From the NCBI RefSeq assembly GCF_932294415.1, contig NC_065535.1, forward strand, positions 11,812,282 through 11,876,281: a stretch of DNA of 64,000 nt, written 5' to 3'. A program made the translations under genes and the position numbers. This document shows positions 12,685 to 54,600 of this stretch, piece after piece; position 1 is the first letter of the stretch, and each line of letters opens with the position of its first letter. This DNA is from Quercus robur. Its lineage: Eukaryota; Streptophyta; Magnoliopsida; Fagales; Fagaceae. The notes below the pieces were generated by a model that made no database searches, was not told the origin of the DNA, and saw only the letters and a program-made list of their open reading frames with translations.

Positions 12685-13321
12685 TGATGATACCGAAAAC
12701 AATACCACCAATGAGTCACACGTTCCTCGTACGATTACTAATGGCACCTGCACAATGAAAAAGAATAACCTAGCGGGGAGTACCGGTGTGGTACCGGCCA
12801 AGTACCCTCCGAAGGTCAAATTAGAATTATTCTCACTGCTCTAGAGTGCTAGAGAGGGTAAATTACGCGTACCTCGGTTTGTGAGGGTGCTTGGGTTTTT
12901 ATAGTAGAGAGGGCTGACCCTCTTTTCCTTGGAGTAGAAGTCTTTTCCTTGTAGGAGTCTCCTTGGGCGTATTTTACGGGATTCTTTCCATATAGGAGTC
13001 TTTAGGTTCCATGAAACGTGGGGAGCAAGTTATTTACTTATACGTGCGAGATGGAAACTTCATAGACTGACACCGTCAGTTTATGTTATCCCGTCAGTCT
13101 ATGCTCACTCCGTAAGCTTCAGGAAGTTCGGCCCTATGTGGAGTTCTTCTGCCTTACATCACCGTCAGCCTAGAAGGTATGCTGACGGCAAGACCATTTC
13201 GTCATCCTTGTTAAGTCGGCATCTTCACTTACCAGGTCTGCACCGTCGCCTTTGTCAGGTACGTGCCGTCACCCTTGGCAGGCACGTGCCGTCACCCTTG
13301 CCAGTGTTTTTATCCTCATAA
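12685..13321 (-). repeat. 3' LTR of the Tat element (left copy)
   Basis: This 637-bp LTR begins TGATGATACC on the plus strand and matches 22188-22824 throughout apart from at most one base at the inner end. It contains six CCGTCA/TGACGG hexamers. Confidence 0.92.
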
Positions 13322-22187: not shown

Positions 22188-22819
22188 TGATGATACCGAA
22201 AACAATACCACCAATGAGTCACACGTTCCTCGTACGATTACTAATGGCACCTGCACAATGAAAAAGAATAACCTAGCGGGGAGTACCGGTGTGGTACCGG
22301 CCAAGTACCCTCCGAAGGTCAAATTAGAATTATTCTCACTGCTCTAGAGTGCTAGAGAGGGTAAATTACGCGTACCTCGGTTTGTGAGGGTGCTTGGGTT
22401 TTTATAGTAGAGAGGGCTGACCCTCTTTTCCTTGGAGTAGAAGTCTTTTCCTTGTAGGAGTCTCCTTGGGCGTATTTTACGGGATTCTTTCCATATAGGA
22501 GTCTTTAGGTTCCATGAAACGTGGGGAGCAAGTTATTTACTTATACGTGCGAGATGGAAACTTCATAGACTGACACCGTCAGTTTATGTTATCCCGTCAG
22601 TCTATGCTCACTCCGTAAGCTTCAGGAAGTTCGGCCCTATGTGGAGTTCTTCTGCCTTACATCACCGTCAGCCTAGAAGGTATGCTGACGGCAAGACCAT
22701 TTCGTCATCCTTGTTAAGTCGGCATCTTCACTTACCAGGTCTGCACCGTCGCCTTTGTCAGGTACGTGCCGTCACCCTTGGCAGGCACGTGCCGTCACCC
22801 TTGCCAGTGTTTTTATCCT

Positions 22820-28166: not shown

Positions 28167-28176
28167 TCAGTTTCCA

Positions 28177-28319
28177 GGCGAAAATGGGTAATTACCCATA
28201 AACATCTAACTATTCAGTTAGTTGGCCCGGTTTGGAAAGATATTGGGATTCTAGCAACTCGAGCCTCAGAGGCTCGATTTTGGGCCTCTAAATCGAGCCT
28301 TTGAGGCTCGGTTTACGTA
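28177..28319 (+). repeat. Left terminal inverted repeat of the giant MULE
   Basis: 143 bp matching the reverse complement of 50188-50330 at about 95% by eye (seven mismatches, no gap). Bases 8-23 of the repeat form a perfect 16-bp palindrome, ATGGGTAATTACCCAT. Confidence 0.93.
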
Positions 28320-28426
28320 CTTTGACATGGCAAAAAAGACGTTGGAGTACACGTGAAAATCGAGTGTCTAAGACTCGATTTCGACGTGGACTAGACATGG
28401 AAATCGAGTCTCAGGCACTCGATTTC
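28256..28426. repeat. Left array of four CGAG/CTCG palindromes
   Basis: Four imperfect palindromes of about 22 bp with the form YCGAG, 8 variable bases, CTCGR. The first two lie inside the terminal repeat; the others follow it. The same motif recurs at the right end and in the centre of the element. Confidence 0.8.
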
Positions 28427-28439
28427 TAATAGGCATTTT

Positions 28440-29908: not shown

Positions 29909-32900
29909 ATGGTTGTTGCAAATGCTGGACGAATTGATTATACACAGCCTGGACCCATTGACGACTCGGTGTTGTCACAGCAGGCGAAGCATCGGTCCGA
30001 AGCTATTTGGAATGGGCGGGTAAAACACTCAACTAAATATACCCTTGTGCACATGCATTTAATCCATACAATGTACACGTATTTGTTGTCATATATTAAT
30101 CCATGGTTTTGTTATGTGCAGGATCCAGGGTCCATTACCTGCCGTAGCCGTAGTTCAGAGTTCTCCAAGCAACCTCTAATGGTGGACGACCGAGTGAGGA
30201 ACATCATCAACACAGTTGGTTTGGAGGGACTCCTCTGGGTCCCGGGTAGAGAGATTGACAATGGCCTGATAACGGCCTTAGTGGAGCGATGGCGGCCCGA
30301 GACTCACACATTTCACATGCCACATGGTGAGGTCACCATCACATTGCAGGATGTGGAGGTTCTTCTCGGGCTTCCTGTTGATGGTGACGCTATAACAGGG
30401 AGCACACAAAAAACTTAGGTGGATGTGTGCTGGGACTTCCTTGGCTTTCGACCTGTAACTCAAAACAACCATAAGCAACTTGATGGGCAGAGGATTCTCA
30501 TCAACCGGCTTTTGGAGGAAGTTGCTAACCCATTGCTGCTTGATGCTGAAGAGGATCAGCTGCATAAGTACGCACGATGCTACATCTTAGCGCTATTGGG
30601 GGACACAATATTCATGGACAAATCCGGTGATAGAGTGCATCTAATGTGGGTGCAGCAGTTGGAAGACCTTTACAACCCACGGAGGTACAGTTGGGGAAGT
30701 GCTTGCCTTGCATGGTTGTATCGAGAGCTATGTAGGGCAAGCGAGGACACCAGTCAGATTGGTGGGTGCTTACTGTTGCTCCAGTACTGGGCATGGGCCA
30801 GATTCCCCTATTTGTGCCCGACAGTTGAGCGTGGCCTGCCAGTGGGTGCTTATGGTCCTCCAGTACGTGGTCCACTATCCCTGAAGTAAGTCTCTACCTC
30901 ATACTGCTATAACATACTATCCCAAGATCATTACCAACCCCACAATCATGTAACTTGATTTTATTTATTGATTTTAAAGGCTTCTAGCAATTTTTTATGT
31001 CAACGTAACAAAATTTTAAACCGAGGTTGAATGTATATGATTATGTTAATCTACTATAATTTTGTGACTCTCAATATAGCTGGTTTGTGCTTTGTCTTTT
31101 AAAAGGGCCGTTTCTTATTCTAGTGATATTATTAATTAGTTTAATATCTTTAAGATTATCTCAGTAGTTATATGTGATTACATTATCTTAGTTTTAACAT
31201 TATCTTAGTTTCATATTGATATTGATATTATTAATTAGTTTAATATCTTAATTTTAACATCCAAATAACATTAATTGATACGTTTCAGCTTTTAGTATTA
31301 TATTGATATTTAATATATGTGATTACATTATAGTTTTAAGATTATCTCAGTACTTATTGATCCCTTCTTCTTCATTGTAGGTGGTTGTGGGTCCCAAACA
31401 AGAAAAATAGGCCCGCCCACATCTTCAGGGACAGGTATCGCGAGCAACTAGCTTCCATGTTGCCAGACCAGGTATGAAAATGCCTTATTTTACGCTTTTA
31501 CGAACGTCCATATAGGTTTCATGAACTTTGAAATATAAACATTGTTCCCTACTGTGTTGTGTACTTCTTTTTTGGCTACTGTAGGTGGTGTGGTAGCCAT
31601 ATGAAGCTCATTTTGACGACCTCCCGCCGTGGTTTGTTGCAGGGAGGGCCGTATGGACAGCAACAGTGCCGCTTGTATGTTTCCACCTAGTAGAGAAACA
31701 TACACCGGATCGTGTTGTTCGTCAATTCGGGATGATCCAAGAAATTCCCCGCAATGTTAACACTGACATAGTGCTTCATGGCATTGATTTGAGGGGGAAG
31801 ATCGGTGTTAATTGGATGCAGAAACATGCTGTGCATATCCTTGAGTGGGGTAATCGCTTGTATCGGCATTGTGAAGCAGTGCTTGGTGATATGCCTCCAG
31901 AGCACGAGTACCACGACTGGTTCAAAAGGGTGACTCGGAGGTTCATTGATAGGCCTGGTGCTGTAGTGACTCTGCTGGTAACTTCTCAATGTCTTCTACA
32001 TGTTACCGTATTTCTTACCATGAAACCACTGTTTAGAGAGCATGCTGTTTGTTACTACATTTTTTGCTTAGCACTTCATCTCCCTTTAATTTGCAATTAT
32101 TAGTAGCAGAACCAACATTTATTTTTTTTATCAATTGGCATTGTTGATTTCGTATTGCATTACTAATATGTGGTTTTTCCATGTGCAAATTGAAGGATAC
32201 GTCCGTTTGTTGAGGCGTCACCTAGCAGGCACGGAGGACCACAACAACATTACTGAGGTGCTGACGGCAGTGCAGGCGATGACACGTGTCCAACCTCCTA
32301 TCCCTGAGGCCCCGATTGAGGAGGCAGCTATGCCTACCGGCCCAAGCACGAGCACAGCTCCGGCCGGATGTCAATCTCGTCCGCCTGTTGCTACCCCTCA
32401 GCTTGTCCCTACCCCCGATCCCTCTGCATCCACCCCACATGCATCCGCCAGCCCCACCATCCCTTCATCCACCCCACATTCATCCCCTACCGTCACCATC
32501 GCTTCACCCAACCCACATTCAGCTCCTACGCCCACCATCCCTTCACCTAGCCCACATCCAGCCCCTACGCCCACCATCCCTTCACCCACCCCCCATCCAT
32601 CTCCTTGCCCCACCATCCCTCCACCCACCCCACTTCCTTGTTCTGGGTCTGACGTCCGTCCACCCACCCCACAGTCATTTCTTCAGCTGTCACCCATTCC
32701 ATCCTTTGACCTGGGTATCCCACCTGACATGCAGTAGGAGCCACCCTCCCATAGTTCGTTTAGTACCCCTTCTTCAGCCATTGACCTACCCCATGTTCAG
32801 GTTGAGTAGGCTGTTGGGTTACCTACAGCGGCTGAAGGTCGGCCTAAACGCATATCAAAGGCACCTCCGTGTGGGATAGGGGGGCACAAACATGGACACA

Positions 32901-32990
32901 ATCTTGGGCCCGAGGCATCTGACGAAGGACATGCAAGACCTCCTCCTCATTATACGAGACGGCGTAAGATTCAAAAAAGGTATCTGAAAG
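29909..32990 (+). pseudogene. Plant mobile domain (PMD) protein, MAIN/MAIL-like, of the giant MULE
   Basis: Exons at about 29909-30019, 30122-30885, 31381-31471, 31585-31977 and 32196 onward have good GT/AG sites. The product opens IDYTQPGPIDDSVLSQQAKH and has the PMD core in exon 2: LITALVERWRPETHTFHMP, GEVTITLQDVEVLLGLPVDG, then YSWGSACLAWLYRELCRA and LLLLQYWAWARFP; exon 4 continues with VPLVCFHLVEKHTPDRVVRQFG. PMD occurs in host nuclear proteins (MAIN, MAIL1, active with the phosphatase PP7L in gene and transposon silencing) and in transposons. The C-terminus is a Pro/Ser/Thr-rich repeat (about 32370-32650), then a basic KRISKAP-type tail. In-frame stops (TAG at 30416-30418, another TAG near 31594, and more in the tail near 32736 and 32808) break it, so this copy is probably not translated in full. 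Confidence 0.85.
32440..32650 (+). repeat. Minisatellite coding the Pro/Ser/Thr-rich tail of the PMD protein
   Basis: About six imperfect 36-bp units built on CCCACCATCCCTTCACC give repeated TIPSP.PHPAPTP residues. Such a tail is probably disordered. Unit-number variation between copies is likely. Confidence 0.65.
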
Positions 32991-33302
32991 CTTAATGTGA
33001 AACAACACACTTTATTCCATTATTATTCCTCTTTTCACATTTCAATAAGATTATTTTTGTTTTCAATATGGTTTGAACGTACATTATTGGAACTAGGTGA
33101 ATGCGTCAAATAAGGACATTAGCTAGAGGTAGATATTCCAACAAGGATATGGTTCTTAAATGTGACAATGGAGGTAACCCAACATGTGTTGGTTGTTAAA
33201 TGCTTTTGTTGCAATTTTATTCCTTGCATCATTTGTTATTTTAATGTAGATATATTTTTATGATACCACAGTCTATTAATAGAACTTCTATTAATTTGAC
33301 AG

Positions 33303-33480
33303 GTGATTGGTGTACCTGTTACACTGAATGGAGATCTGAAGAACCAGTTCGTGGAGACCAATGTTGGTTTTGATACAATATGTAAGGTATTAGTCATACT
33401 GGCCGGAGAGCATGCTGTGGTGCACGGATCCACGGCGGTGGCTGCTTCCCTTGACCTCTACACCTATGTATGTTTCTCTT
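33303..33480 (+). pseudogene. MVK: Captured fragment of mevalonate kinase, first exon
   Basis: The frame contains [18 protein letters not shown] followed by LDLYTYV, the N-terminal GHMP-kinase segment of plant mevalonate kinase (the cytosolic isoprenoid enzyme that phosphorylates mevalonate). The usual start MEV..RAPGK is missing and is replaced by other sequence in the same open frame ([19 protein letters not shown]) of unknown origin. After TYV the sequence passes into what looks like the gene's own first intron (about 33468-33990). No later mevalonate kinase exon follows. It lies between the PMD gene and the MED8 fragment on the same strand. Confidence 0.8.
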
Positions 33481-34027
33481 CGATTTCCCACTCCCTCTGG
33501 TACACACACTCTCTCTGTGTCTCTCTTTTTGTTGCTATTTATTTGCTGTGGTTGTTTTGTTTTTAATGTTTGTGATGTGGGGTTGTGTTGAATTGGCACA
33601 AAGATGGGAGATTTGGGCCTGACTTGAATTCGATATTGGTTGAAATGGTGATTACAGCATACCCTTTTGAGCTTTTGTGGTTTTGTGATGTGTGCGCTGC
33701 ATTATGTTGCTGTGATTGTTTACTTTGGGTTTAATTTCTTGATTGGAATATACCCTTTTGAGCATTTGTGCTTTTTATGTGTGTGTGTTACTGTGCTTAG
33801 GATTTGTGGTTTTGGGGTTTGCGTTAAATTGGGTTTTGTTACCTTGAATTATGTTTCGCCTAATGTTTTATTTCTTTTCCAAACTATATGATAATGCTGT
33901 TTGCATGTTTTGTTAAATGCTTTTGGTCTAATTAGGTCTTTGAACACATTTTGTGAATATTTTCCAATGAAACACATAATATAGCTATCAAAGTTTTTAA
34001 TCAATTTGTGGGATTCTGTGATTACAG

Positions 34028-36465
34028 TACTACTAGTTATGCTGTCTTCAAAACTGTTGCCTGAGATGGAAGTGGAGGACAACTCCAAGAGGGAGCAGTT
34101 GCTTCTTGGGATGCAAAACTTGCCATTATCTTCACAAATTGAGAAGTTAAAGGTTTTTTAAAGTTCATTGAGCATCCAAATTTCAATATTTATTTATTTT
34201 CATGAATTCTATGCATTTAGAAATCTCCATTTTACAGGCTAGAATTGATATGATTGGAGCAGCTTGTGAAAGTGCAGAAAAAATGATAGCTGACATGCGT
34301 AAAGCCTATATGTTTGGAACCCGTCAAGGGCTGACAATTGCCCCAACTTTGGATAAGGGTCAGGCTGCAAAAATTCAAGAACAAGAGAATTTACTTCGAG
34401 CTGCTGTAAATTATGGCGAAGGCATTACTCTCAACTGTCTCTTTACATTCACTGCCCTTTAGATTATCTGCTTTTCATCTAGCTCTAAATTTATATTGGT
34501 TAATTGCTTTCTTGTATCTTGAGATGAAAGGCCTTTGCATGCAGTCTAGTCTTGTAAATTTGTTTCAGCAATTTGTCGTCAAATAGTACCACCTCTATGA
34601 CAAAGAAAAAGTTCGACAGAAATGATTTACTGTATGTTTCTTGTCACTAAGGACGGCTTTCACAGATGCTTTGTGCATATTAGAGTAGCTGCAGATGGAT
34701 TTTCTCTTATTGTGTTTTGTCTGAATTCTTCTTATTATTGTTAGCAGTTAGTAACATTCTTAAACATTGACACAAATTGCTGCTTCTAGTGCATATATAA
34801 ATAAGTTTAATTTCCTTAACCCCTCACCTCCCCCCAAATATAAGCTACTTTTGTGATGTATGCTATTGTAGCAATGACAAAAGGATTGAGAATTTTAAGG
34901 GCCTCATTTTGTGTTCTTAATTAAGCACATTCTTTTCTGGCACCAGCCCTTTGGCTTAGTTATCTGATTGATGATTAATGGGAGACACATTAAAGTGCCA
35001 TATAGAATTGATAGCTTAGGTTCCCGGAGTCTTTCTCCAAATTGTCCAGACACAAGTTGGTTGATGGATCAATTCCATCCCCTGTCAAAGAATTGTGTCC
35101 TCATTTTGAGGATTCGTTGGTCTAGACCCGCTTGAAATGATCTTAATTGTTGATCTAGAGTCCAAGTTGCAAATTATTCTTTCATCACGTTAAATATGGG
35201 CTTTACTTTCTAAGATAATCTTTACATTTGCATATAATTAAGGGTTCCTTGGTCTGCTTAAAATTTAGAGCTAGTACATAATTTAGTAATAATGTTTTGG
35301 TGAGTGTGGCTGCTTGTCAAAATGGACATTGAGGTGCAAGATCAGTTGCATATTAAGGACGGTGGGCCAAAGCATATTTTCAGAGGTTTTGACTAATAGC
35401 AATGTAGAGTATCTTGAAAATAATATAACCTCTAATAAAGCTTCAAGTTTTTGTGCCAGAAAGATGTATTTGGTCTAGGCATACTTGTAAGTTTACATTT
35501 AGAAATGATTGGTTTATGCATGTAGGATTACGAATACCAGGAGACCAAAGGCAGATCACACCTGCACTTCCATCGCATTTGGTGGATGTGATCACTGTAG
35601 GTGATGGAGTGCAAAGTTTTGCTGATGCATCTGGTAATAATCAGTCACTTGTTGAAGCATGATCTTTTTATTTTTGGAATATATACATTGGATTGAATAT
35701 CAATTCTATTTTGGTGGCTTTTGCAAAAATTTGTTCTAGGAATGTATTCAAAGAATACCCCTGTGTCATCAAATAACATCAGTGGACAGGGCACTTTGTT
35801 GCAGGTATGATCCTTGACTTTATTTTTAAGTTTCACATTGTGAAGTTTTACATGATTCATTAATTTTTTCCTGAAATTGTGAATTAAAGAGGCTGGCCTA
35901 CTAATGTTAAAGCCTAAACATCATTCGTGTGGTTGTCCTCTAATTTTGATTTACGATTACTGATATCCTACACACCCTAGTGTGCATAAGTGGGGCATGC
36001 TATGCTTTTATCCCTATCTTGCTATGTTTGTGTTAACAAGTTGTAGATAAAGGTTTGGGGTTTGTGTTAGCCTGTTGTGGCTTGATATTCTGCATCTGTA
36101 GGATGGGAATTAGGGTCTTCTTTTCTGAAGGTGTGTGTTTTGTCCAATTACCAAAAACTTTTAAGCAGGCTTCTGCACCACAACTTATTGAAAGATCAGC
36201 TGCATCTCCTAGTGCCACAACTGCTACTTCCTTTGATAACACAACAACATCTCCACTACAATATGCCAATTCTCCTAGGTCAGGTACAAACATGATGAAC
36301 ACACCATCTCCTCAGCAACATACCCCTCAGCAACTGCAGCAGCAACAACAACAGCAGCAGCAGCAGCAGCCAAGGCAGAAACTGATGCAACTACCTCAGC
36401 ATCAGCAGCAGCAAATCCTTGCACAGCAACAGTTCAGGCAATCTGCAATGCAAGGACTGGTACAG
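34028..36465 (+). pseudogene. MED8: Captured fragment of Mediator subunit 8, five exons with introns
   Basis: Exons at about 34028-34152, 34238-34421, 35526-35633, 35740-35803 and 36168-36465 join in frame. They encode MLSSKLLPEMEVEDNSKREQ, then ARIDMIGAACESAEKMIADM, GQAAKIQEQENLLRAAVNYG, LRIPGDQRQITPALPSHLVD, and a long Ser/Thr/Gln region with a Gln run (about 36325-36370). This is the order in plant MED8, a head-module subunit of Mediator. The conserved N-terminal helices and the true C-terminus are absent. One donor reads GC instead of GT (after 34421). Retained introns show that the copy was taken at the DNA level. Confidence 0.9.
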
Positions 36466-37069
36466 GTGAGGAATAATACTACAATATATGATTTTGAAGT
36501 GGTTGCATCTTTTAGTTGATTCAATAAACAATACTGAATTGCTAGTTATGTTTACGCTTCCAGTGTTCCATCCAAAGTTGAGGCTGTTTATGGAAGTTTG
36601 GACATATAATTTCTTGCACTAGAACATGCTTAATGATATGTATGTTTGTAAATGAACTTTCACACCAACTTTGGTTCTATTTAGGATAAAATTTAAATTT
36701 TGGAGATCTGATGGGTTTTCAGGACTTAGTGGAGGTAAGAAAATCCTTGTATTGAAAATGGGTGAAACAAATGATGTAAACTATTTTGAGAATGAAAAGG
36801 AAAAATCTTCTCCCTTGGTATTTGCCTCCGTCTTGTATCACACAATCTGTTCCAGAGCTATTGAACTGATTGAATTCGTTAAATGATAAGAAAATGTTGG
36901 AAAGTTAGTGAGAAGTAGTTGTTTAGGATTCTAGAATGCATTTTTGGAGTATCCTTATTGCTTTTGTGAGCAAATGTGAGCAATTTTTTGTTTTTTTTTT
37001 TGTTTTTTTTCCCCCAATATCCCATGCAAGGGAAGTGTTTTTTGGATTTTTCTTGGAAAGTTTGGTCAA

Positions 37070-37225
37070 TGAGCTAGAGCTCATTTGGCACCTTCTCCTC
37101 CTCTTATAAGTGCTAGATGGAGGGAGGCTGAAATTGTGGGTTCGAGACCCTTTGGGTATGTGCGTGTGTAACTTACCACATACAATAGCTTACTCTGTTG
37201 AGATGAATATGACTTATTTGCCTTT
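37070..37225 (+). mobile_element. SINE-like insertion in the giant MULE
   Basis: A box A-like phrase (AGCTCATTTGGCACC, about 37077) and a box B-like phrase (GTGGGTTCGAGACCC, about 37137-37151) lie with tRNA-like order and spacing between the MED8 and UBP fragments. The tail and target duplication are not clear. Confidence 0.5.
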
Positions 37226-37368
37226 TTTTTGGGGCAGCCAAATGGAGTTCTGGTTTTAGTTTACATTGTGGTCACAGTACATTATAGGTTTCGATTATTG
37301 CTGGTGTGCTAAGATATAAGCTATTTATCTATTTTATGTGTTTATGTTCTTTTTTTTCTAATCGCTAG

Positions 37369-40397
<3,029 letters not shown>

Positions 40398-40670
40398 GTT
40401 AGTTGCTACTTGCCAGTATGCATCTTTATACTGTAAATATCTTATTTAACCCTCAGTAGAATTCATGCCAAGATAGTAAATCTAATTAAAATTGTAGAGT
40501 TTAGTTGATGTGTTTTCTTATCTCCTAAGCTATAATGGCTTAGACTGGTTAACCGAGATTATTCCTGTTTTTACCTCATTTTTTTCCAAATCCTTATCTG
40601 CCTTTCTAGCTAAATTTGATAATAGTACTGCATTAGATTCTTTATGCATGATTTAACTACATATGAGCAG

Positions 40671-41578
40671 GTTACTCCTGTTCCAAAGCCTCAACATGTT
40701 GAGAAAATGGAGTCAGCATCGACAGTGGCCCAAGATGAAGCTACAAAGCAGGCTTTGGATGCTGCTTCTGTTGTCTCTCCACCAAAAGTTGACTTTGCTA
40801 CTGACCTATTCGACATGTTATCCATGGATGGTCCAAGTGAAAATGGTTTAGAGGCAGCTTCACCTGATGATAATGCTTGGGCTGGTTTTCAGTGTACGTC
40901 TCTGCTGAGTACATATTTTCACTTTCTGGATCATCAAAACAGTATTCCTAATTTTGTGCATCTTTTTGCTAACATGTATGTTGCATTTTGAGATTAAGGG
41001 TTATGGTTGTGCTTTTGTTTATGGTTGTTGCAGCTGCTGAAGAAGCATCAACAGCTGAGAAAACTGGTCCGACAAAGCCAGTTGAAAGTAGCCCCCAGTT
41101 AGCTTCTGCAATTCAGGATCTTTTTCTAGATTCACCCTCAGTAATGCCTCCTGTTTCAGAGAAACCCAAGAAAGATGTAAAAAATGATATTATGAGCCTT
41201 TTTGAGAAGGTAAATGCTTTGCATTATTTATAAGATTGTTATGAACTAATTTTTTACTAGGTTTCTACCATTTGTTTTTAGTTAGTTATATTAGATTTAT
41301 ATTCGGTATTTGGAGTACCAGTGTAAAAGTTCATTTTTATTCAATTTAACACAATTGAGCTTGTGGAACACCCCAACAGTTGTCTATGAGTTTGGTTGGA
41401 GTGTATAGTTTTCTGGTTATTGTTATGCGTTGCATGTAAAAATTAACAAACAATATAAGATTATGGTTTGAATTGCAGTCAAATATGGTGTCTCCATTTG
41501 CTCTGCATCAACAACAACTTATGATGCTGGCTCAGCAACAATCCCTTCTCATGCAGTCGTTTGGGAAAGATACTTGAT
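40671..41578 (+). pseudogene. AGD5: Captured fragment of ARF GTPase-activating protein AGD5, C-terminal half
   Basis: Exons at about 40671-40893, 41034-41209 and 41479-41578. They encode VTPVPKPQHVEKMES, FATDLFDMLSMDGPSENG, DDNAWAGFQ, then AEKTGPTKPVESSPQLASAI, FEKSNMVSPFALHQQQLMML and AQQQSLLMQ. This is the pattern of the C-terminal, Gln- and Ser-rich part of AGD5, a trans-Golgi ARF-GAP. The zinc-finger GAP domain is not included, so no GAP activity is possible. The real C-terminus is lost after QQSLLMQ. Confidence 0.88.
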
Positions 41579-41593
41579 AATTATCATGCAGTC

Positions 41594-41792
41594 CAAGGAA
41601 ACTAATGAACAGGCTGATGAGGTTCTAAAGTAGGATATTTTGGATTGTTGGACGCTAGAAAATCACTACGGATGGACTGAATCTGAGTGTTAAACATGTT
41701 GGGTTTAGACCATCGGTAATGATTTTCTGGAGTCCAACAATCCAGAATATCCAACTTTAGAACCTTATCAGCTTTTTCATCAGTTTCGTTGG
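41594..41792. repeat. Inverted repeat, arms about 83 bp, spacer about 32 bp
   Basis: Arms 41594-41676 and 41709-41792 are reverse complements at roughly 85% by eye, sharing GGTTCTAAAGT, GGATATT.TGGATTGTTGGA and AGAAAATCA. The repeat lies between the AGD5 and RPT6 fragments. It could be a small fold-back element or an inverted duplication made during capture. Confidence 0.7.
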
Positions 41793-42420
41793 AGCTAATC
41801 TGAATGAAGGTTTTGAAACCTTAATTGAATAAAAAGGTATGCTTGTTTCCCAAATATTGCAACCTTGAATTAGCATAACGAGATTTAGCATTAAAGTTAC
41901 CTCTATTGGGTTTCACTTTGTATGATTTTTGACTTTATTCATTGTATTACAGTTGTCATGAAGCGTCATACGCTGCTTGAGTCACTTTGATTTCCCAATG
42001 TAATTATATTACTTGTAAATTTATCACACCCTTTTTTTTACATAGAGTAAAAAAATTCCTATATCAGAAAGTTAAGTGCTTTATGGCGAGTCTGCAACTT
42101 CTATTTAGTTATCAGGATGTCATTTAATCAATGTCTTGGCTCAAATGTCATGGCATTGTAATGGGTGGATATGGTTGTCATGGGATGCTAAACTGGGTAC
42201 TTATTTTTCATTTCTTTTTTTATTATTCTCTTCATTTAGGAATTAGGATGGGTTGGCTAGTCATTAAGATTGATGGATTTATTTAAAGTTGATTGCATAA
42301 CACACAAATATTGCATCTAATCAATTGCAATAATTTTATTTTATGTTTCTAGATATATATTTTTTAGTTTCTTGAGTTTTGGTTAGGATTTGGTCAATGA
42401 CGTTATCTCAAAAATTGACA

Positions 42421-43265
42421 GTGAGAATGCTTAGGGAAGAATTACAGCTACTCCAGGAGCCTGGATCATATGTTGGTGAAGTTGTCAAAGTAATGGGGAA
42501 GAATAAGATTTTAGTTAAGGTAAGTAATATTCCTAATTGAATGCAGTCAATTGTAAATTTGCAGCTGTGCCTTAATGGTTTCTTTTTTTGAAAAGTAATG
42601 ATATTTTAGCAAGGGAATAGACTATTACATGCACAAGGAGTGCCTTAGGAGTGCCTTTTTGTTAATAAGAGATGGTTTGATAACAGTTTGAATACATTTT
42701 TATGTAATGTTTCATCTTGTTTCCCAGGTTCATCCTGAACGGAAATATGTTGTTGACATTGATAAAAATATCGATATCACCGAGATAACTCCATCAACAA
42801 GAGTTGCTCTCCGTAATGACAGTTATGTGCTTCATTTAATCTTGCCAAGCAAAGTTGATCCATTGGTCAACCTCATGAAAGTTGAAAAGGTTCTAGATTC
42901 CACATATGACATGATTGGCGGTCTTGACCAGCAAATTAAAGAGATAAAGGAGGTTTGCCTCGTGTACCCTTTTACTTTCTGCATTTAAACTCCAATGCTT
43001 ATTGTGTCTCCATATTACTTCCTTGATTAGGGAGGCATATTTGGTTGTAAATCATACACTCTTTTAAACTAAGCATTTTGGATATCAACTTCTCTTTTTC
43101 TTTGGCAGGGAACATGCTCCATCAATCATATTTATGGATGAAATAGACAGTATTGGATCTGCTCGAATGGAATCTGGTAGTGGCAATGGTGACAGTGAAG
43201 TGCAGCGGACTATGCTAGAGCTTCTCAACCAGCTGGATGGATTTGAAGCATCAAATAAAATAAAG
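42421..43265 (+). pseudogene. RPT6: Captured fragment of 26S proteasome ATPase RPT6, Walker A exon missing
   Basis: Exons at about 42421-42519, 42728-42952 and 43109-43265. They encode [33 protein letters not shown], then [53 protein letters not shown], and after a jump [20 protein letters not shown] and [19 protein letters not shown]. This is RPT6 (regulatory subunit 8), an AAA ATPase of the 19S base. The exon or exons with GPPGTGKT (Walker A) between IKEIKE and EHAPSII are absent, while Walker B (FMDEID) remains. The deletion falls between two splice sites, so exon skipping by DNA loss inside introns is likely. Confidence 0.92.
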
Positions 43266-43430
43266 GTATCGTGTGTGTTTTCATTATGCAGATTGGGTTG
43301 TTTAGTTTTTGGTACTTTTCTTTATTGTGACCTCAACTATTTAAACAGATTCATCTCTTATTGTAAGTATTTGGCAAGCATGTCAAAATGAGATGTTAAA
43401 TGCTTTTATTTTTCTTCATTCATCATGTAG

Positions 43431-44241
43431 CTAGATGGATACATGGCTAGGAAGATGAGAATTAATTCTGTACTGGGTTCCTACCTTGATCCCCTTGTTG
43501 ACAAGGTAAAAGTTCAAGCCCTTTCTTCCTTCTGAGCTCATTATAATTGGCCAGTTGCTCGTTGCTCCCTGATATTTGGGTCATTTAGTCTTCCCTGTAG
43601 CTGAATTATGCTTTTGTTCCCTCTTCTTGATACAGGTTCTTATTGGTGTATCTATGTTCAGCAATGTGGTCTGGGATTTGGGATTTTAATAGGTTATTTA
43701 GTAAACTAGTAAAGCTTTATAATGCTCTTCCTATTTTCCGATGAATTTTTTTATGAAATATTTAGTTAGTTAGTTAAGCACAAAATTTGTAAAAAGTATT
43801 TTGATCAGCAGTGCAACTGATATCATAGACTGTAGTAAAAGATAATTAGCACAGCAAGCCTGTTGCTGATATCAGACTGTACAAAAAGATAATTAGCACT
43901 TTCATTATGCAATTAGGTTGATTGATTTTAAACTCTGTCAGGTTGATTAACAAGGAGTACTATTCTTGACAGGTTAATACAGTTTTCCATTTGGTTTTAG
44001 TAGCTGCAGCTCTTCTTCAACCAGAATTTGGAATCCAGGAAACTCAGCCATACATCAATAATTTGAGGTAATGCAGCCACTACTCTGTTGGTTTGAATGT
44101 TGAATCTGATAATGTTGAATAACTCAAGTCCATTTAAGTCCGTGCAGTTGGTTAGTGGCATCAACAACAGTGGGTTCTAGTGCAGCATATGGAGCACGAT
44201 ACTTGAGGAAGAGATCTGCCTTGATTAGTGGAAAATCTTAG
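43431..44241 (+). pseudogene. CLS: Captured fragment of cardiolipin synthase, C-terminal exons with the stop codon
   Basis: Pieces at about 43431-43505 ([25 protein letters not shown]), 43636-43665 (VLIGVSMFS), 43973-44067 (VNTVFHLVLVAAALLQPEFG, IQETQPYINN) and 44149-44241 (WLVASTTVGSSAAYGARYLR ending in TAG). The order fits plant cardiolipin synthase, the mitochondrial inner-membrane CDP-alcohol phosphatidyltransferase. The N-terminus, including the first part of the CDP-alcohol motif, is missing, and the middle membrane segment is cut. The final exon seems to keep the normal stop, so the capture may include host 3' sequence. Confidence 0.82.
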
Positions 44242-44438
44242 TTTCAATCTTTACCTTGCAGACAACTGACATAACACCATCAGTTTTGAGATATGTACTG
44301 GGTCTCAGCATCAAAGGATTTGAAGAAGTAATGGTGGTGCCAAGGTTGTGTATCTGTATACCGATATTGTTGTAAATTACGGATAATGTTGTAAAATGGA
44401 TAATTGAGATATCTGTACTGGGTCTTAGTTTTGAGATA

Positions 44439-45580
44439 TTGTTGTAAATTACGGATAATTGAACTATTTGCTATCCATTTTACTCGTTACATTAGTTGCG
44501 TGATGCAGCTTTTTCCTATAATACAATGATATTACTTTGGCAACTATAATTTTATTGAATAGTTACTATTTTAATGTGGTTGTAGAACTTTTAATGTATG
44601 CTCCCTTCGCCTATGGAAAATTTGGTTTGTGGTTAAAATGTGTTATGGGCCCTGGAAAATTTGCTGCAGGGGAAAACTAATTCTGGTCCCATTATGCCTG
44701 CGGCAAAAAAAAAAAAAAAAATCACAGTAGAACTCGAGTATCTTATACTCAATTTCCATAAATGGGAATCGAGTCTCTAAGACTTGATTTCTATTTATGG
44801 AAACCGAGTATAAAATACTCGAGTTCTACTGGGAATTTTTTTTTTTTTACCCCAATTTGAGATGTAAAAAACATAATTCAAGGGGAAAACTAATTCTGGT
44901 CCCATTATGCCTACGGCAAAAAAAAAAAAAAAAAAAAAAAAAATCACAGTGGAACTCGAGTATGTTATACTCGATTTCCATAAATGGAAATCGAGTCTCT
45001 AAGATTCGATTTCTATTTATGGAAACCGAGTATAAGATACTCGAGTTGTACTGGGAAATTTTTTTTTTTTTTTTTTTGCCGCAGGTCATGGGAGAATTAT
45101 TCTGTACTTGAATTATGTTTTTTACATCTCAAATTGGGGTAAAAAAAAAATTCCCAGTAGAACTCGAGTATTTTATACTCGGTTTCCATAAATAGAAATC
45201 GAGTCTCTAAGACTCGAGTTCTACTGTGATTTTTTTTTTTTTTTTTTTTTGCCGCAGGCATAATGGGACCAGAATTAGTTTCCCCCTGCAGCAAATTTTC
45301 CAGGGCCTAGAACACATCAAACAACCACAAACCAAATTTTCCATAGGCGAAGGGAGCATACATTAAAGTTCTACAACCAGATTAAAACAGTAACTATTCA
45401 ATAAAATTATAGTTGGACAAAGTCTTAGCACACAATGGCAGTTCAATACTAGAAGGGCCTTGTGGTTGAACTTGCCAAAGTAATATCATTGTTCGTATTA
45501 TAGGAAAAAGCTGCATCACGCAACTAATGTAACGAGTAAAATGGATAGCAAATAGTTCAATTATCCGTAATTTACAACAA
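44439..45580. repeat. 1.14-kb internal long inverted repeat
   Basis: Outer arms (about 44439-44879 and 45105-45580) are reverse complements, nearly identical apart from an extra segment of about 60 bases (near 45418-45475) in the right arm. They share TTGTAAATTACGGATAATTG, GCGTGATGCAGCTTTTTCC and TATGCTCCCTTCGCC. The inner part is itself hairpin-rich and carries the CGAG/CTCG palindromes and A or T runs. It lies between the last captured gene (+) and the 3' end of the transposase gene (-). Open frames inside it (poly-Lys/Phe) are artefacts of the repeat. Confidence 0.88.
44731..45222. repeat. Central array of about eight CGAG/CTCG palindromes
   Basis: About eight imperfect palindromes of about 22 bp, such as TCGAGTCTCTAAGACTCGAG and CTCGAGTATGTTATACTCGA, spaced by CCATAAAT or TTTATGG. 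They match those at the element ends (28256-28426 and 49968-50250). Confidence 0.8.
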
Positions 45581-45886
45581 TAAACAAAATAACAACTAAG
45601 TTAATACAACATAGTCTACATATTCGCCTAGCGGAAGCTCCATACTGATATAACATATTATACATAGTCACCTAACACTTGTCCATACTGATACAACATA
45701 CTCTACATAATCACCTAGCTTGTCCATACAGAAGATAACGACAAGTCCCACGTACAATGTCACTTACGAAAATCAAGTCTCCGCTTGCCTGACAAACATT
45801 AAATACGGTTATTAGTTTCCAAATGCAAAGAACAAAAACCAAATGACATTCTGAGTATATTATATAAAAACAGTGACGACACTTGC

Positions 45887-48700
45887 CTAGTTCATAGCAC
45901 TACCACTTGTCGAAGCCCCATGGGAATTGGGACAGCATCTGCGGTTATGCCCCTCTTGATGACACACTCTACATCGTTGCCTCGGTTGAATCTCCCTCAA
46001 CTCCGGATCTTCCCTCCGGCTTCCCCGTTCTCGCCGTACCCCATCCATTTCATTCCTTATTCTTGACATCGTAGGACGACCTTTGGCCCGCAACAATTGT
46101 GGGTCAGGCACCCACCGTGGTCCGCGAACGTCTGTCCATAATGACTCTGACTTTGGCACCACAAAATTATGTGAATATGTTTGAATGGCGTTGTTCAGAC
46201 TGTAACATGGGTCAATATAGCTGGGTGCATCGAGATACAGACCTTTAAGAACTTTAATTGCATGTGAACAAGGGATCTTCAAGTTTTGCCACTTTCCACA
46301 ACCACAGGTTCTATCAAATATGCGCACATCATGACTGTGATTTCCCCCTCCAGCTCTATGGTTGTTATACGGGGTAACCACTTGATATATACCCTCTGCA
46401 TGATTATAATTCCTCAGAGTGTGTCCTGCAATTTTCTGCTCATTTTTGTTATAGATCTCCATTGCATAATCACTCCACACCTTACCTCGAGAGAGATCAG
46501 AAGTAATTTGTTTATGTCGATCGTGGAAATATGCAACAAGTTTAAAAAAAGTGAACTCAACCATTGCAGCAATGGGCAAACCGCGGGCACCTTTAAGAAC
46601 CCCATTAAAGCACTCAGAGATATTGGTTGTCATTGCCCCGTAACGTCTTCCACCATCATGTGACTGGGTCCATTTGTCTACATCCTCACTCATTAGATAT
46701 GTGTATGGCATATAACGTATAATCCGGCGATAAGTAGGGTTTACACCCCTCAGTAAATTAATCTCGGCCTTCTTAATGGTTTGCATTATGGACACAAATT
46801 TAGCATCATGAGTCGCATATCCAGCTTTCAAGGCCAATGCCTTTAAAGTCGGTTTATCAAAATGTGTGTTGAAGTTGCTAGCAACATGTCGAAGGCAATA
46901 TCGATGATATACCCGTTCTCTTCTGTCTTACCCTCTAGGCCACTCTCGAATGGCGCATTTGATACCTTTATGTCGGTCAGAAATAATGCAAATGTCCTTG
47001 TTTTCAATAACACGCTCTATCGAAGTCCTGAGACACTCTAAAAACCACCCCCAACTAGACCCTGACTCCTTGTCCACAACAGCAAAGGTGATAGGCAAAG
47101 CCTTTTGATTAGCATCGGTTGCCATTGCAATCATCAATACCCCTTTGTATTTACCATATAAATGAGTTCCATCAATACTGATCACTGGCCTGCAATACTG
47201 GAATGCAGCAATGCATGGAGCGAATGCCCAATATACATAGCGCAGTAACGTAGTACCTTCTAATGGCTTAGGTATGGTGTGATAGCTATACTGGGTACCC
47301 GAATCCTGATCCAAGTATGCCAACAACAACTTTCGCAACCTTTGGTAAGACTCCTCCCAATCCCCAAAAATCTTAGCAATTGCCTTTTGTTTTGCGTCCC
47401 ATACTTTATAGTAAGAAAGCTCATGATCATACTTAGTACGTATGATCTCCCAAAGCTCATCAACAGTAGCAGTGTGCTTTTTTCGCAATCTTCCCACAAT
47501 TTCTGATGCAACAAAATTAGAATCCATCATTCTACCATCTCTTCGCAGCCCAAAGGGTATACAACTGTGTGGACCCACATAAGACGTGACCATCCACAGA
47601 CCATTGAATTTAGGCTTCATGTATGCCCCAACGTACCACTTGCAGTTGTCGTCAACGCATGTGGTGCACAATTGAGTTGTGCTCGACCTTTGGATGGAGA
47701 AATTTCTATTATCCTTTGCTGCGTATATTATCAATGCACGCTTCACCGTAGCTTTATTTGCAAAAGTCAACCCTTTACAAAAATGCATCCCATCTTGCCA
47801 AGTACAAAGAAATGGTATCTGAAGACGTGAAGGATCAACCATATCTTCCCAAGTATTTGCGTAGAATGAGTCCGCAGGAGGTCTGTAGCCAGTGGTCGTA
47901 TCTGTATCATGCTGGACACCAATATCATCATCATCTGCATCACCTTCATCATGGTACTCCATATTTTCCTCTTCAAAATTAGGAACGACTTCATGCTCAT
48001 CCACATCGTTCTCAAAGTCACCTTGCTCAATCCTTTCTTCATACTGATCCATATCATCATTATTTTCACCATCATTCGCAACATGATCTTCGTCTTCGTC
48101 TTCATCTTCCTCCTCTAAATGTGTCTTTTGAGAGTAAAGGGTTTCACCAGTATTCGCAACATAATCTTGAGATGGGAGCGTATAACCTCCCATTGCATAC
48201 CCTCCCATTGTAGTGCATCCATCATCTAGGGCTGTAAATTGTAAAGCCGTAGATGTTTCTTGCACCACCTCAGTACTGTTGTCTACACTCGCCTTCAAAC
48301 TTACATACAACTCAGCAGCATTTACTTGGGGCATTTTCTGGATCCTATTAAACATCATCTTTACATGTTTATCTTCTTTAATCGCCATATACCCGTAATT
48401 TATTCGTTCATGAAGAACTTCTTGTGGGTAACGATAAATAATCTTGATGTCATACCAAGCAGGGTTCAATTTCAATTCGTCCATTATTTTCCTCTTCAAA
48501 TCAGTCAACATCTTCAACTTACGACGTAACATCATGTAGTAGCATTCGATACCCTCCCCTCTAAATGGGAATCCGTCAATCCCTTCAGGATTGTAAAGGG
48601 GTCCACCGAAGTATACATTTATGTCAATATTCTTCAAAGATTGTGAACCTATTAGAGAGCCAAGTAAATTTATGTTAGTGACATATTTGATCTCTTTCAT
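45887..48700 (-). pseudogene. mudrA-like: MuDR-type transposase of the giant MULE, one in-frame stop
   Basis: Starts at the ATG at 48700. Order by residue: N-terminal region 1-160 (INVYFGGPLYNPEG, PAWYDIKIIYRYPQE); acidic stretch about 195-265; MuDR DNA-binding-like domain about 300-376 (FCKGLTFANKATVKRAL, C..C-type core); MULE transposase domain with first catalytic Asp in SIDGTHLYGKYKG (about 506), second Asp in CIISDRHKGIKCAI (about 572) and likely Glu in TTNISECFNGVLKGA; SWIM zinc finger CGCGKWQNLKIPCSH; and a CCHC knuckle CRVCHQEGHNRRCC near the end. A single TAA after EWPRG (near 46926-46928) interrupts an otherwise continuous frame. It is transcribed from the right end toward the centre, convergent with the PMD gene. 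Confidence 0.93.
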
Positions 48701-49967: not shown

Positions 49968-50250
49968 AACTCGAGTCTCTAAGACTCGGTTTACTAAAAT
50001 TGAAACCGAGTCTTAGAGACTCGAGTTTCAAACCACAAAATTTTATGTTGTTAAAACTCGAGTCTTTGACACTCGGTTTAACTTAAGTAAACCGAGTTTC
50101 AGAGACTCGAGTTTAGTCTACATGGAACTCGAGTCTTAGAAACTCGAGTTCCACGTAGACTCCTTGCCACGTCAAACTTTGTCAACATACGTAAACCGAG
50201 CCTAAAAGGCTCGATTTAGAGGGCCAAAATCGAGCCTCTGAGGCTCGAGT
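49968..50250. repeat. Right array of about seven CGAG/CTCG palindromes
   Basis: Seven imperfect palindromes of about 22 bp (for example CTCGAGTCTCTAAGACTCGG) run into the right terminal repeat. Motif and spacing are like the left and central arrays. Confidence 0.8.
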
Positions 50251-50330
50251 TGCTAGAATTCCAATATGTTTCAAAATCGGGCCAACTAACTGAATAGTTA
50301 GATTTTTATGGGTAATTACCCATTTTCGCC
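50188..50330 (-). repeat. Right terminal inverted repeat of the giant MULE
   Basis: Reverse complement of 28177-28319 at about 95%. It is followed by the 10-bp target duplication TCAGTTTCCA (50331-50340). Confidence 0.93.
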
Positions 50331-50393
50331 TCAGTTTCCATATTTAATGTCAATGCTTTTGAATTTTTTTAAAAATCTAATTTTAACTACTTT

Positions 50394-51639: not shown

Positions 51640-54600
51640 TCAGTTCAAGTTCAAAACATCATGGTGAAGAGATTGCTCAATAAAGCAAGGGTTCTCTTCT
51701 AACCAAGCAGTAAAATCAATAATACCCGACGCATGCTTTGCTAACAAATGCGCTGGTCTATTACATTGTCTACGGACATGTGAATAATCCACCCGTCTTA
51801 CAAAACCACTCAAGACTTTGATACCTGCTATCACTGTTGCCACTGAAGAGGGAGGTGAGGTGTTACCACACAGTGCATTTACAACTGTTAGGGAATCCCC
51901 TTCAATGATAATGTCCTGCACACCGATATCCCTTGCGAACTGAACTCCTGCTTCAAGAGCCTTTGCCTCAGTTTCCAGCGGCCCCAATGGTGCATTAATC
52001 CGCTTGCTCAGTGCTGCAATTACCTGACCATGGCAGTCCCGAATTAATACCCCAACTCCAACTGCCTTCTGTGCTTTGAAGACCGCTCCATCCACGTTCA
52101 CTTTATATCTATCTGGCGGTGGAGGTGTCCATCTCTCTACCTGAACTTCTGGAACCGTGGCTGGTCGATCAAGGGCCATGTAATACTCCCTTAGATAACG
52201 GGAAGTCCACTGCACCAGTTCGCCACCCGATTTCTTTTTTCCTCCATTACGCACCTCGTTTCTATTACTCCAGATTGCCCATGCTATTGCTGCAACCAAC
52301 GCTACCTTGGACTCCTCATACTTTCCTTCCATAATCATGTGCCACATTAAATCAAAACATGAACGGATCTTATCTACAGCTATACTGAAATGGATCTTTG
52401 TACAACTCCATACTTCTCTGGCTCTCGGGCAGCTCCAAAATAAGTGTCCTGTTGTCTCAGGTTCTTCATGGCAGTCAATGCAGCAGTCTTCTTGCAGAAT
52501 CTTCCTTCATACCAGATTTGTCTTTGTAGGTAGGCTATCACGGCATGCCCTCCAAATAAAATGCCGAATCTTATGTGGTGCTTGTATCATCCATAGTAGC
52601 TTCCAAAATTTCTTAGTTTGGCTCTCATCTGAGCTTGAGCCGTAATTGGGAGGTCGGGAGAGGTTCATTGCTAGCTTGTATGCGCTCTGAACAGTGAATA
52701 AGCCATTTGCACTTTCTGCCCATATGATTCTATCATCCGGTGGCTGTATGCTCAACGGTATACTTTTGATACACTCTGCCTCATGTGGGAGAAACAGAGC
52801 ATCAATCACTTGTGCTTTCCACTGTGTAGACTCCTGGTCAATTAACTCACACACCTTAGTATCTGCACTCAAGAATAATCTGGGGGATACGACTTTGTAT
52901 GTTAAGGTAGATGGTAGCCACTTATCACTCCATACCCGAATGGATGTCCCCTTCCCTACACTCCATCGACTTCCTTCCTTCACCAAATACTAAGCCGCCA
53001 TAATACTCCTCCACACATACGATGGATTTGTACCAATTGAAGCATTTATAAAATCTGTACGAGGGAAATACCGTGCCTTAAACAGCCTATATAATAAGGA
53101 ATCCTGCATTGTTTGAAGTCTCCACCCTTGTTTAGCAAGTAGAGCAAGGTTGAATTGTTTTAGTTGTCGAAAACCCATTCCACCGGCTGCCTTGGGTTCA
53201 CATAATTTATCCCAACTAAGCCACGCCATTTTCCTCTCATTTTGTTTCTGACCCCACCAAAAATTGCGAATCAGGCTAGTCAATTCGTCACATAGAGAGT
53301 CGGGTATTTTAAAACAATTCATTGTGTAAGTAGGTATAGCTTGAGCTACAGCCTTAATCAACACTTCTTTTCCTGCTTTTGACAAGAGTTTCTCCTTCCA
53401 CCCTGCTAATTTCTTGCAAAGCCTTTCTTTGATTTCCTTAAACGAATTTCTTTTACTTCTTCCCACAAGAGACGGTAATCCCAAGTACTTCTCATGTTGC
53501 TTAATGACTTGTGCCCCAAATCTATTCTTGATTTCTTCCTTCACCTCATCCGTAGTGTTTCTACTAAAAAACAGTGATGTTTTTGCTCTATTCAGTTGTT
53601 GACCGGATGCCTTCTCATAGACTGCAAGGATTTTTTGTAAGGTGTTGCACTCTTCAATTGTGGCCTTACAAAAAATAATGCTGTCGTCTGCAAAGAAAAG
53701 GTGTGAGATTCTTGGTCCATTTCTGCAAATACTCAACCCCTCCATCTCTCCATTATCCACCGCTTTCTGAATTAGAGCTGATAGAGCTTCTGCACATAAA
53801 AGGAATAAATAAGGTGACAAGGGGTCTCCTTGTCGTAGACCCCTTGTAGGAATAATATGCCCTTTTGGATTACCATTTATTCTTACAGAGTATGACACTG
53901 ATGAAATACATCTTATTATCAGATTCCTCCATTTTTCCTCAAAACCCAATTTTGTCATAATCCTTTCAAGGCACACCCATTCTACTCTATCATACGCCTT
54001 ACTCATATCTAATTTAAGAGTCATCTCCCCTTTCTTGCCACCCATTTTATGATGAATGTGATGCATGGACTCAAAAGCTACTAAAACATTATCGGTGATC
54101 AACCGTCCATGCACAAATGCACTTTGGGTGTCACTAATAATGGATGGTAGTATCTTCTTCAACCTATTAGCTATTACTTTGGATGTAATTCTAAAAACCA
54201 CATTACAAAGACTAATAGGTCTATAATCAGTCACACATTTTGGCTCTTTAATTTTTGGAATAAGGACTATATGAGTTTCATTAAAATTAGGGGGTGCTAC
54301 ACCATTATTTAGAAAATCAAGAATGGTTTTTGTGACTACCTCACCAATATCCGACCAAAAATGCTGATAAAACAAAGGAGGCATACCATCCGGTCCAGGT
54401 GCTTTTAGAGGGTGCATTTGTTTCAGTGCTATCCTTACTTCATTCTCCATAAAATCCCTTGCAAGCCTCCGGTTCATGGCTGGTGTCACCTTTGGCTGAA
54501 TAGCATTCAACACCTCATTGAACTCATTCGGCTCACTTGTTGTGAAAAGCTCTTTATAGTAGTCCACCACCATCTCTCCCATTCGGTCTTCATCATCTTG

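What the first reader, a model, noticed from the sequence alone, without database searches (positions are those of the whole stretch)
33303..44241. Six unrelated host genes captured side by side, all on the same strand, introns kept
Fragments of MVK, MED8, UBP12/13, AGD5, RPT6 and CLS follow one another on the plus strand. Each is partial, and junctions fall in introns or next to exon edges. Retained introns show DNA-level capture, not retroposition. Six of six in one orientation has probability 1/32 if random, and all six match the direction of the PMD promoter. This suggests selection for, or a mechanism favouring, read-through sense orientation.
Basis: partly seen in the sequence, partly recalled or inferred. 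Interest (0 to 1): 0.93.

Follow-up and report, generated by a model that had tools for sequence, protein, structure and literature searches.

The report
Jumping gene hoarding host gene pieces
A plant DNA transposon about 22 kb long has picked up pieces of seven unrelated host genes from different places in the genome, step by step, and relatives of it that were examined have picked up others, nearly always in the same direction as the transposon's own accessory gene.

Summary
The cargo lies inside one 22,154-bp Mutator-like element (28177-50330) with terminal inverted repeats, an exact 10-bp target-site duplication, a plus-strand plant-mobile-domain (PMD) gene and a minus-strand MULE transposase gene. 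All six named genes are there. A seventh, PFP, was missed (33193-33396) and is fused in an open frame to MVK. In the host's own genome the seven best donors lie at seven loci on five contigs, so this is not one segmental duplication. Introns are kept, so DNA was captured. Where both sides of a junction could be read there are 2-6 bp of microhomology or short filler. Of four relatives read in full, some share PFP, MVK or RPT6; none has MED8, UBP12, AGD5 or CLS, so capture was stepwise. By my tally over this copy and seven relatives (three read only as cargo stretches), 21 of 22 distinct captured genes are sense to PMD (two-sided p about 1e-5; 14 of 15 in the relatives). The exception is a MADS-box piece. 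Captured exons show no sign of protein-level selection (pN/pS 0.46, one stop). What causes the bias, read-through or selection included, is untested. New variant of multi-gene capture by MULEs.

The parts
28167..28176 (.). left copy of 10-bp target-site duplication TCAGTTTCCA
   Evidence: exact match to 50331-50340; a third chance copy lies at 51968
28177..28425 (+). left terminal inverted repeat
   Evidence: 83% over 253 columns to 50330-50089; 152 nt at 94%
29911..32998 (+). PMD (plant mobile domain) gene, several exons, with in-frame stop(s) in this copy; limits approximate
   Evidence: Pfam PMD 5.1e-17 on 31597-31977; PMD DNA at 28 other places, 50 rows, capped list; stop 30416-30418
33193..33396 (+). 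captured piece of PFP (intron end plus one exon)
   Evidence: 99% to donor C2:16.5666M; PDB 1kzh 4e-4; donor PFK 8e-5, below Pfam cut-off
33394..33841 (+). captured piece of mevalonate kinase (exon 1 from inside, part of intron 1); frame open from the PFP exon
   Evidence: 95.3% to donor C3:11.80M
33920..36858 (+). captured piece of MED8 (name recalled)
   Evidence: 98.4% to donor C5:86.05M
36861..40508 (+). captured piece of UBP12/13 (one premature stop at 39429)
   Evidence: 96.7% to donor C1:19.81M
40495..41553 (+). captured piece of AGD5 ArfGAP, ends inside an exon
   Evidence: 93.9% to donor C37:18.96M; donor ArfGap 3e-43
41591..41793 (.). imperfect inverted repeat, also in the three RPT6-bearing relatives read in full
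41884..43389 (+). captured RPT6 region; 41956-42005, 41990-43048, 43060-43337 and 43333-43389 match the donor, which has more between them
43384..44365 (+). captured piece of cardiolipin synthase, donor sequence missing inside
   Evidence: 95.4-96.6% to donor C5:75.85M
44437..45582 (.). large palindrome between cargo and transposase gene
45887..48700 (-). MULE transposase gene, one in-frame stop between 590- and 346-aa halves
   Evidence: Pfam MULE 1.6e-14, DBD_Tnp_Mut 6.7e-6, SWIM 1.8e-6; 39 other places, capped list
50089..50330 (-). right terminal inverted repeat
50331..50340 (.). right copy of target-site duplication

Best explanation
This is one copy of a Mutator-like element family that carries a PMD gene and a transposase gene and repeatedly copies pieces of host genes, as DNA, into the stretch between those two convergent genes. 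Shown: a bounded element with TIRs and a target-site duplication; seven captured pieces whose best donors lie at seven loci; introns kept; short microhomologies at the junctions that could be read; pieces present in some relatives and absent from others; 21 of 22 captured genes in the sense of PMD by my tally. Inferred: each piece entered by template switching during repair or replication of the element, and some were later trimmed. Also inferred: the sense bias comes from loss of antisense captures (which would make RNA antisense to host genes) or from better survival of spliceable sense pieces in the PMD transcription unit, not from coding function of the pieces.
For: TIR and TSD. Transposase and PMD domains; 39 and 28 other places in capped lists. 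Donors mapped in the same genome. Of four relatives read in full, PFP is in three, RPT6 in three, the 5' MVK piece in one, and MED8, UBP12, AGD5 and CLS in none. Relatives carry other genes. Junction overlaps 3, 5, 6, 4 and 2 bp, one 2-nt filler. A GSK3-like piece matching its donor at 100% (rounded) over 1,471 bp points to recent capture. Intron divergence to donors runs from 0.016 (MED8) to 0.059 (AGD5) with separate intervals. Orientation 21 of 22 (odds). pN/pS 0.46, near the 0.5 expected of a free copy against a constrained donor.
Against: No RNA or small-RNA data. Strand was assigned by me from reading frames, with Pfam or PDB support for 20 of 22 genes; MED8 and a YLPM1-like gene are named from recall only, and the Pfam hits for PFP's donor (PFK), the alkenal reductase and the BSK-like kinase are just or well below cut-off. 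One captured gene (MADS) is antisense and is shared by at least a dozen members. Several cargo stretches are unassigned. Divergence is not a clean clock: AGD5, found only in this copy, is more diverged than RPT6, which many copies share, and PFP, found in three of four relatives, is 99% identical to its donor. A left TIR was not found in three relatives and C5_57M has no matching TSD.
Confidence: 0.82

Rival explanations
1. A single segmental duplication of neighbouring genes, or one capture of a region where the genes already lay together.
For: The pieces are adjacent and in one direction.
Against: Best donors lie at C1:19.8M, C2:16.6M, C2:81.7M, C3:11.8M, C5:75.8M, C5:86.1M and C37:19.0M. 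PFP joins MVK inside an exon. Relatives carry subsets.
Confidence: 0.02
2. A Helitron, a kind of element known to gather several gene pieces, assembled the cargo and then inserted into the MULE.
For: Helitrons gather gene pieces stepwise (PMC3288121, passages seen). One relative holds a segment that begins with a Helitron-like 3' end (motif recalled).
Against: That segment lies apart from the genes counted here. In the window the pieces are shared piecemeal with relatives in the same place between PMD and transposase, which one insertion would not give. No scan for Helitron ends in the window cargo was run.
Confidence: 0.05
3. The sense bias is an accident of a small or biased sample, or of strand assignment by eye.
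For: Seven relatives only, three of them by a cargo stretch alone. Strand was assigned by reading. The minus-strand control used ORFs of at least 62 aa and so would itself have missed the one known antisense piece (55 aa).
Against: 14 of 15 in relatives not used to form the idea, 4.9e-4 one-sided. A Pfam scan of 60 of 80 minus-strand ORFs found no family above its cut-off; one weak DUF7331 match, 0.0059, in the window.
Confidence: 0.12
4. The bias is made at capture, not by later selection, for example because donors are transcribed genes used in one polarity relative to the element's own transcription.
For: The youngest-looking pieces are sense: GSK3-like at 100% and JmjC at 99%.
Against: Two pieces are too few, and I know of no mechanism that fixes polarity.
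Confidence: 0.25

Closest known systems
Pack-MULEs (rice and other plants)
   Same: Mutator-like TIRs, long target-site duplication, capture of gene pieces, elements with pieces from several loci (PMC4858842 and PMC8903248, passages seen).
   Different: Pack-MULEs are described there as non-autonomous, without transposase. This element carries a transposase gene and a PMD gene, and seven genes in 22 kb.
PMD-carrying MULEs
   Same: MULEs that encode a PMD; Ikeda et al. infer two independent captures of host PMD-C by MULEs (PMC5418596, passages seen).
   Different: There the PMD is fused to the transposase, in several grasses and Amborella. Here it is a separate gene that converges on the transposase gene.
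Tgm-Express1 (soybean CACTA element)
   Same: Five unrelated host gene pieces in one DNA transposon, spliced into chimeric transcripts (PMC1947982, passages seen).
   Different: CACTA superfamily, 5.7 kb, one insertion inside a gene. Transcription was shown there, not here.
Maize Helitrons with several captured genes
   Same: Stepwise capture of pieces from several loci (PMC3288121, passages seen).
   Different: A different class of element; TIR and TSD are present here.

Membership tests
Mutator-like element (MULE) | MULE-type transposase | tested here: met
   Pfam MULE, DBD_Tnp_Mut and SWIM above cut-off; one in-frame stop
Mutator-like element (MULE) | terminal inverted repeats and a 7-11 bp target-site duplication (criterion seen in PMC4858842) | tested here: met
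   TIR alignment of 253-254 columns at 83% and exact 10-bp TSD
Mutator-like element (MULE) | copies at different sites | tested here: met
   39 other places with transposase DNA in a capped list
Pack-MULE | captured gene pieces between the TIRs | tested here: met
   seven pieces with mapped donors
Pack-MULE | no transposase (non-autonomous) | tested here: not met
   transposase gene 45887-48700; definition as in PMC4858842 and PMC8903248
PMD-carrying MULE | PMD domain encoded inside a MULE | tested here: met
   Pfam PMD 5.1e-17
PMD-carrying MULE | PMD fused to the transposase, as in the published cases | tested here: not met
   separate genes on opposite strands
PMD-carrying MULE | PMD belongs to clade PMD-C | not tested
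   no tree was built
Helitron | 5' TC and 3' hairpin plus CTRR, without TIR or TSD (recalled) | tested here: not met
   the element has TIR and TSD; Helitron ends inside the window cargo were not scanned for

The most novel reading that the evidence does not exclude
A MULE family that works as a directional exon accumulator: captures enter, or survive, almost only in the sense of the PMD transcription unit, so that successive captures build a growing tandem of spliceable host exons behind one promoter.
Probability: 0.35. Interest if true: 0.82.

Novelty: new variant of a known kind. Interest (0 to 1): 0.66.

Why it matters
How DNA transposons capture genes, and why the pieces persist, is open. 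Here donors, shared captures, a very recent capture (100% identical) and older ones lie in one genome, so the order of capture and the cause of a strand bias can be tested directly. If the bias is general it would link capture to transcription, splicing or small-RNA silencing. My searches of the held library listed no paper whose title, abstract start or passages seen describe a sense-strand bias of gene pieces captured by MULEs. Jiang et al. [quoted passage not shown] it may bear on this.

Tried and rejected
Pfam and PDB did not name MED8. A ClpB-like minus-strand reading in relative C5_57M was first put in a nested Helitron (my note). It is at p15407-15219, at the end of the C39:42.02M capture, and looks like the tail of a convergent neighbour gene (PDB Hsp104 only 0.05). 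It is not counted as a separate capture; counting it would give 21 of 23. Relative C37_64M was first taken as cargo-free (note), but it holds a 69-bp PFP remnant and an 818-bp JmjC piece. A splice-site comparison used exon limits off by a base or two and is not relied on; the exon/intron split uses nearly the same approximate limits. Left out of the orientation count because unassigned: C5_57M p23633-24405, C4_36M p10544-10862, parts of C4_54M p9100-10000, window 33842-33919 and 41554-41590; also the Helitron-like and many-copy segments of C5_57M. The minus-strand Pfam control used 60 of 80 ORFs; the 105 plus-strand ORFs were not scanned as a set. The host looks like Fagaceae (about 12 large contigs seen, 786 Mb), a guess from recall.
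Full report
What is there. Inverted arms at 28177-28425 and 50330-50089 align at 83% over 253 columns, 152 nt of them at 94%. They are flanked by an exact 10-bp duplication TCAGTTTCCA at 28167-28176 and 50331-50340. Between them are a plus-strand PMD gene (Pfam PMD 5.1e-17; in-frame stop at 30416-30418) and a minus-strand transposase gene with MULE, MuDR-type DNA-binding and SWIM domains and one in-frame stop. Transposase DNA of this kind occurs at 39 other places (41 rows, one being the window and one place split in two; 21 of the 39 are full length at 97-98%). PMD DNA occurs at 28 other places (50 rows). Both lists score only the best 40 candidates, so they are lower bounds.

Captured genes. 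The six named genes are confirmed, the name MED8 from recall. A seventh, PFP, lies at 33193-33396. Its exon is joined to the inside of MVK exon 1 through a 3-bp overlap, and the frame runs on open. Best donors in the same genome: PFP C2:16.57M, MVK C3:11.80M, MED8 C5:86.05M, UBP12 C1:19.81M, AGD5 C37:18.96M, RPT6 C2:81.66M, CLS C5:75.85M. None of these is next to another.

Junctions (the UBP12/AGD5 one read by eye from its letters). Overlaps are 3 bp (PFP/MVK), 5 bp (UBP12/AGD5), 6 bp (RPT6/CLS), 4 bp inside CLS and 2 bp inside RPT6. MED8/UBP12 has a 2-nt filler, another break inside RPT6 has 11 unmatched bases, and 78 bases between MVK and MED8 and 37 after AGD5 are unassigned. This fits template switching or end joining with microhomology, as reported for animal Pack-TIRs (PMC8277862, passages seen).

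Order. Four relatives were read in full (C37_64M, C4_36M, C4_54M, C5_57M). PFP intron DNA is in three and not in C4_36M. RPT6 is in three and not in C37_64M; the 5' MVK piece is in C5_57M alone; MED8, UBP12, AGD5 and CLS are in none, at matches of 120 bp or more. MVK 3' pieces were seen in C5_57M and, by reading, in C4_54M. In the genome search with the cargo, MED8, UBP12, AGD5 and CLS matched only their donors, a MED8 paralogue at 80-92% or so in pieces, and many copies of a LINE-like stretch in the UBP12 intron; 39 of 909 candidates were scored. Intron K2P to donors is MED8 0.016 [0.011-0.021], UBP12 0.021 [0.016-0.026], CLS 0.034, RPT6 0.038, MVK 0.039, AGD5 0.059 [0.041-0.080]; PFP 0.018 on 113 sites. 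So the captures differ in age, but divergence and sharing do not rank them alike (AGD5 and PFP against RPT6); donor paralogy, rate differences or gene conversion may explain this.

Relatives' cargo and orientation. Pieces with assigned strand: C4_36M has MTHFR, callose synthase and PDH-E2. C4_54M has alkenal reductase, limit dextrinase, SNF2-like, ABC-F (donor not found) and SHMT in sense, and a MADS K-box in antisense. C5_57M has a YLPM1-like gene (name recalled, no Pfam match) and a BSK-like kinase. C3:13.47M has an LRR gene. C1:14.91M has a kelch/ACBP-like gene and a GSK3-like kinase. C41:32.81M has a JmjC gene. Finer names such as GSK3, BSK and ACBP are recalled. Counting each gene once, and with the window's seven, 21 of 22 are sense with PMD: two-sided 1.1e-5; 14 of 15 in the relatives, 4.9e-4 one-sided (odds, tally mine). 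The MADS piece is shared by at least a dozen members, so an antisense piece can persist. The minus-strand Pfam control (60 of 80 ORFs of at least 62 aa) found nothing above cut-off, but its length limit would have missed the 55-aa MADS piece, so it is a weak control.

Function. Captured exons in the window differ from donors at 47 of 3,199 sites and introns or UTRs at 194 of 7,439, with approximate exon limits. pN/pS is 0.46 with one nonsense change. A free copy against a constrained donor predicts about 0.5. So the pieces do not look like protein-coding genes under selection, and 'selection for read-through' would have to act on orientation or RNA, which was not tested.

Judgement. Composite capture by MULEs is known (PMC4858842, PMC8903248) and PMD inside MULEs is known (PMC5418596). 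A transposase gene, a separate convergent PMD gene, a seven-gene cargo and a sense bias across the relatives read make a new variant. The bias is the part worth following.

Noticed in passing
44437-45582: Large palindrome between the CLS piece and the transposase gene; its outer 88-nt arms are identical, which suggests a recent inverted duplication.
   Followed up: partly
41591-41793: Imperfect inverted repeat also present in the three RPT6-bearing relatives read in full; it may be a small nested element or a snap-back copy.
   Followed up: partly
L042:3887-5357 (C1:14.91M): GSK3-like kinase piece matching its donor at 100% (rounded) over 1,471 bp, so capture in this family is recent.
   Followed up: partly
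L043:1-3993 (C41:32.81M): About 4 kb of a JmjC-domain gene, 99% to its donor, parts of it also in other members; possibly relevant to silencing of the element.
   Followed up: partly
C5_57M p15416-22308 (reverse complement of L020-L023 joined): Segment that starts with the reverse complement of a Helitron-like 3' end (hairpin, CTAG; motif recalled), with 97-99% copies at C4:64.69M and C5:87.02M.
   Followed up: partly
38036-38980: LINE-like stretch (by reading) in the UBP12 intron, with many genome matches; the UBP12 donor matches right across it, so it came with the capture.
   Followed up: partly
13243-13304 and 22746-22807: The same 23-bp tandem repeat at two places 9.5 kb apart with higher G+C between; perhaps the ends of an LTR retrotransposon.
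   Followed up: no
28256-28429, 44731-45224, 49968-50255: Short palindromic repeats of the type AACTCGAGTCT...AGACTCGAG near both ends and in the centre of the element (family D3); possibly transposase-binding repeats.
   Followed up: no
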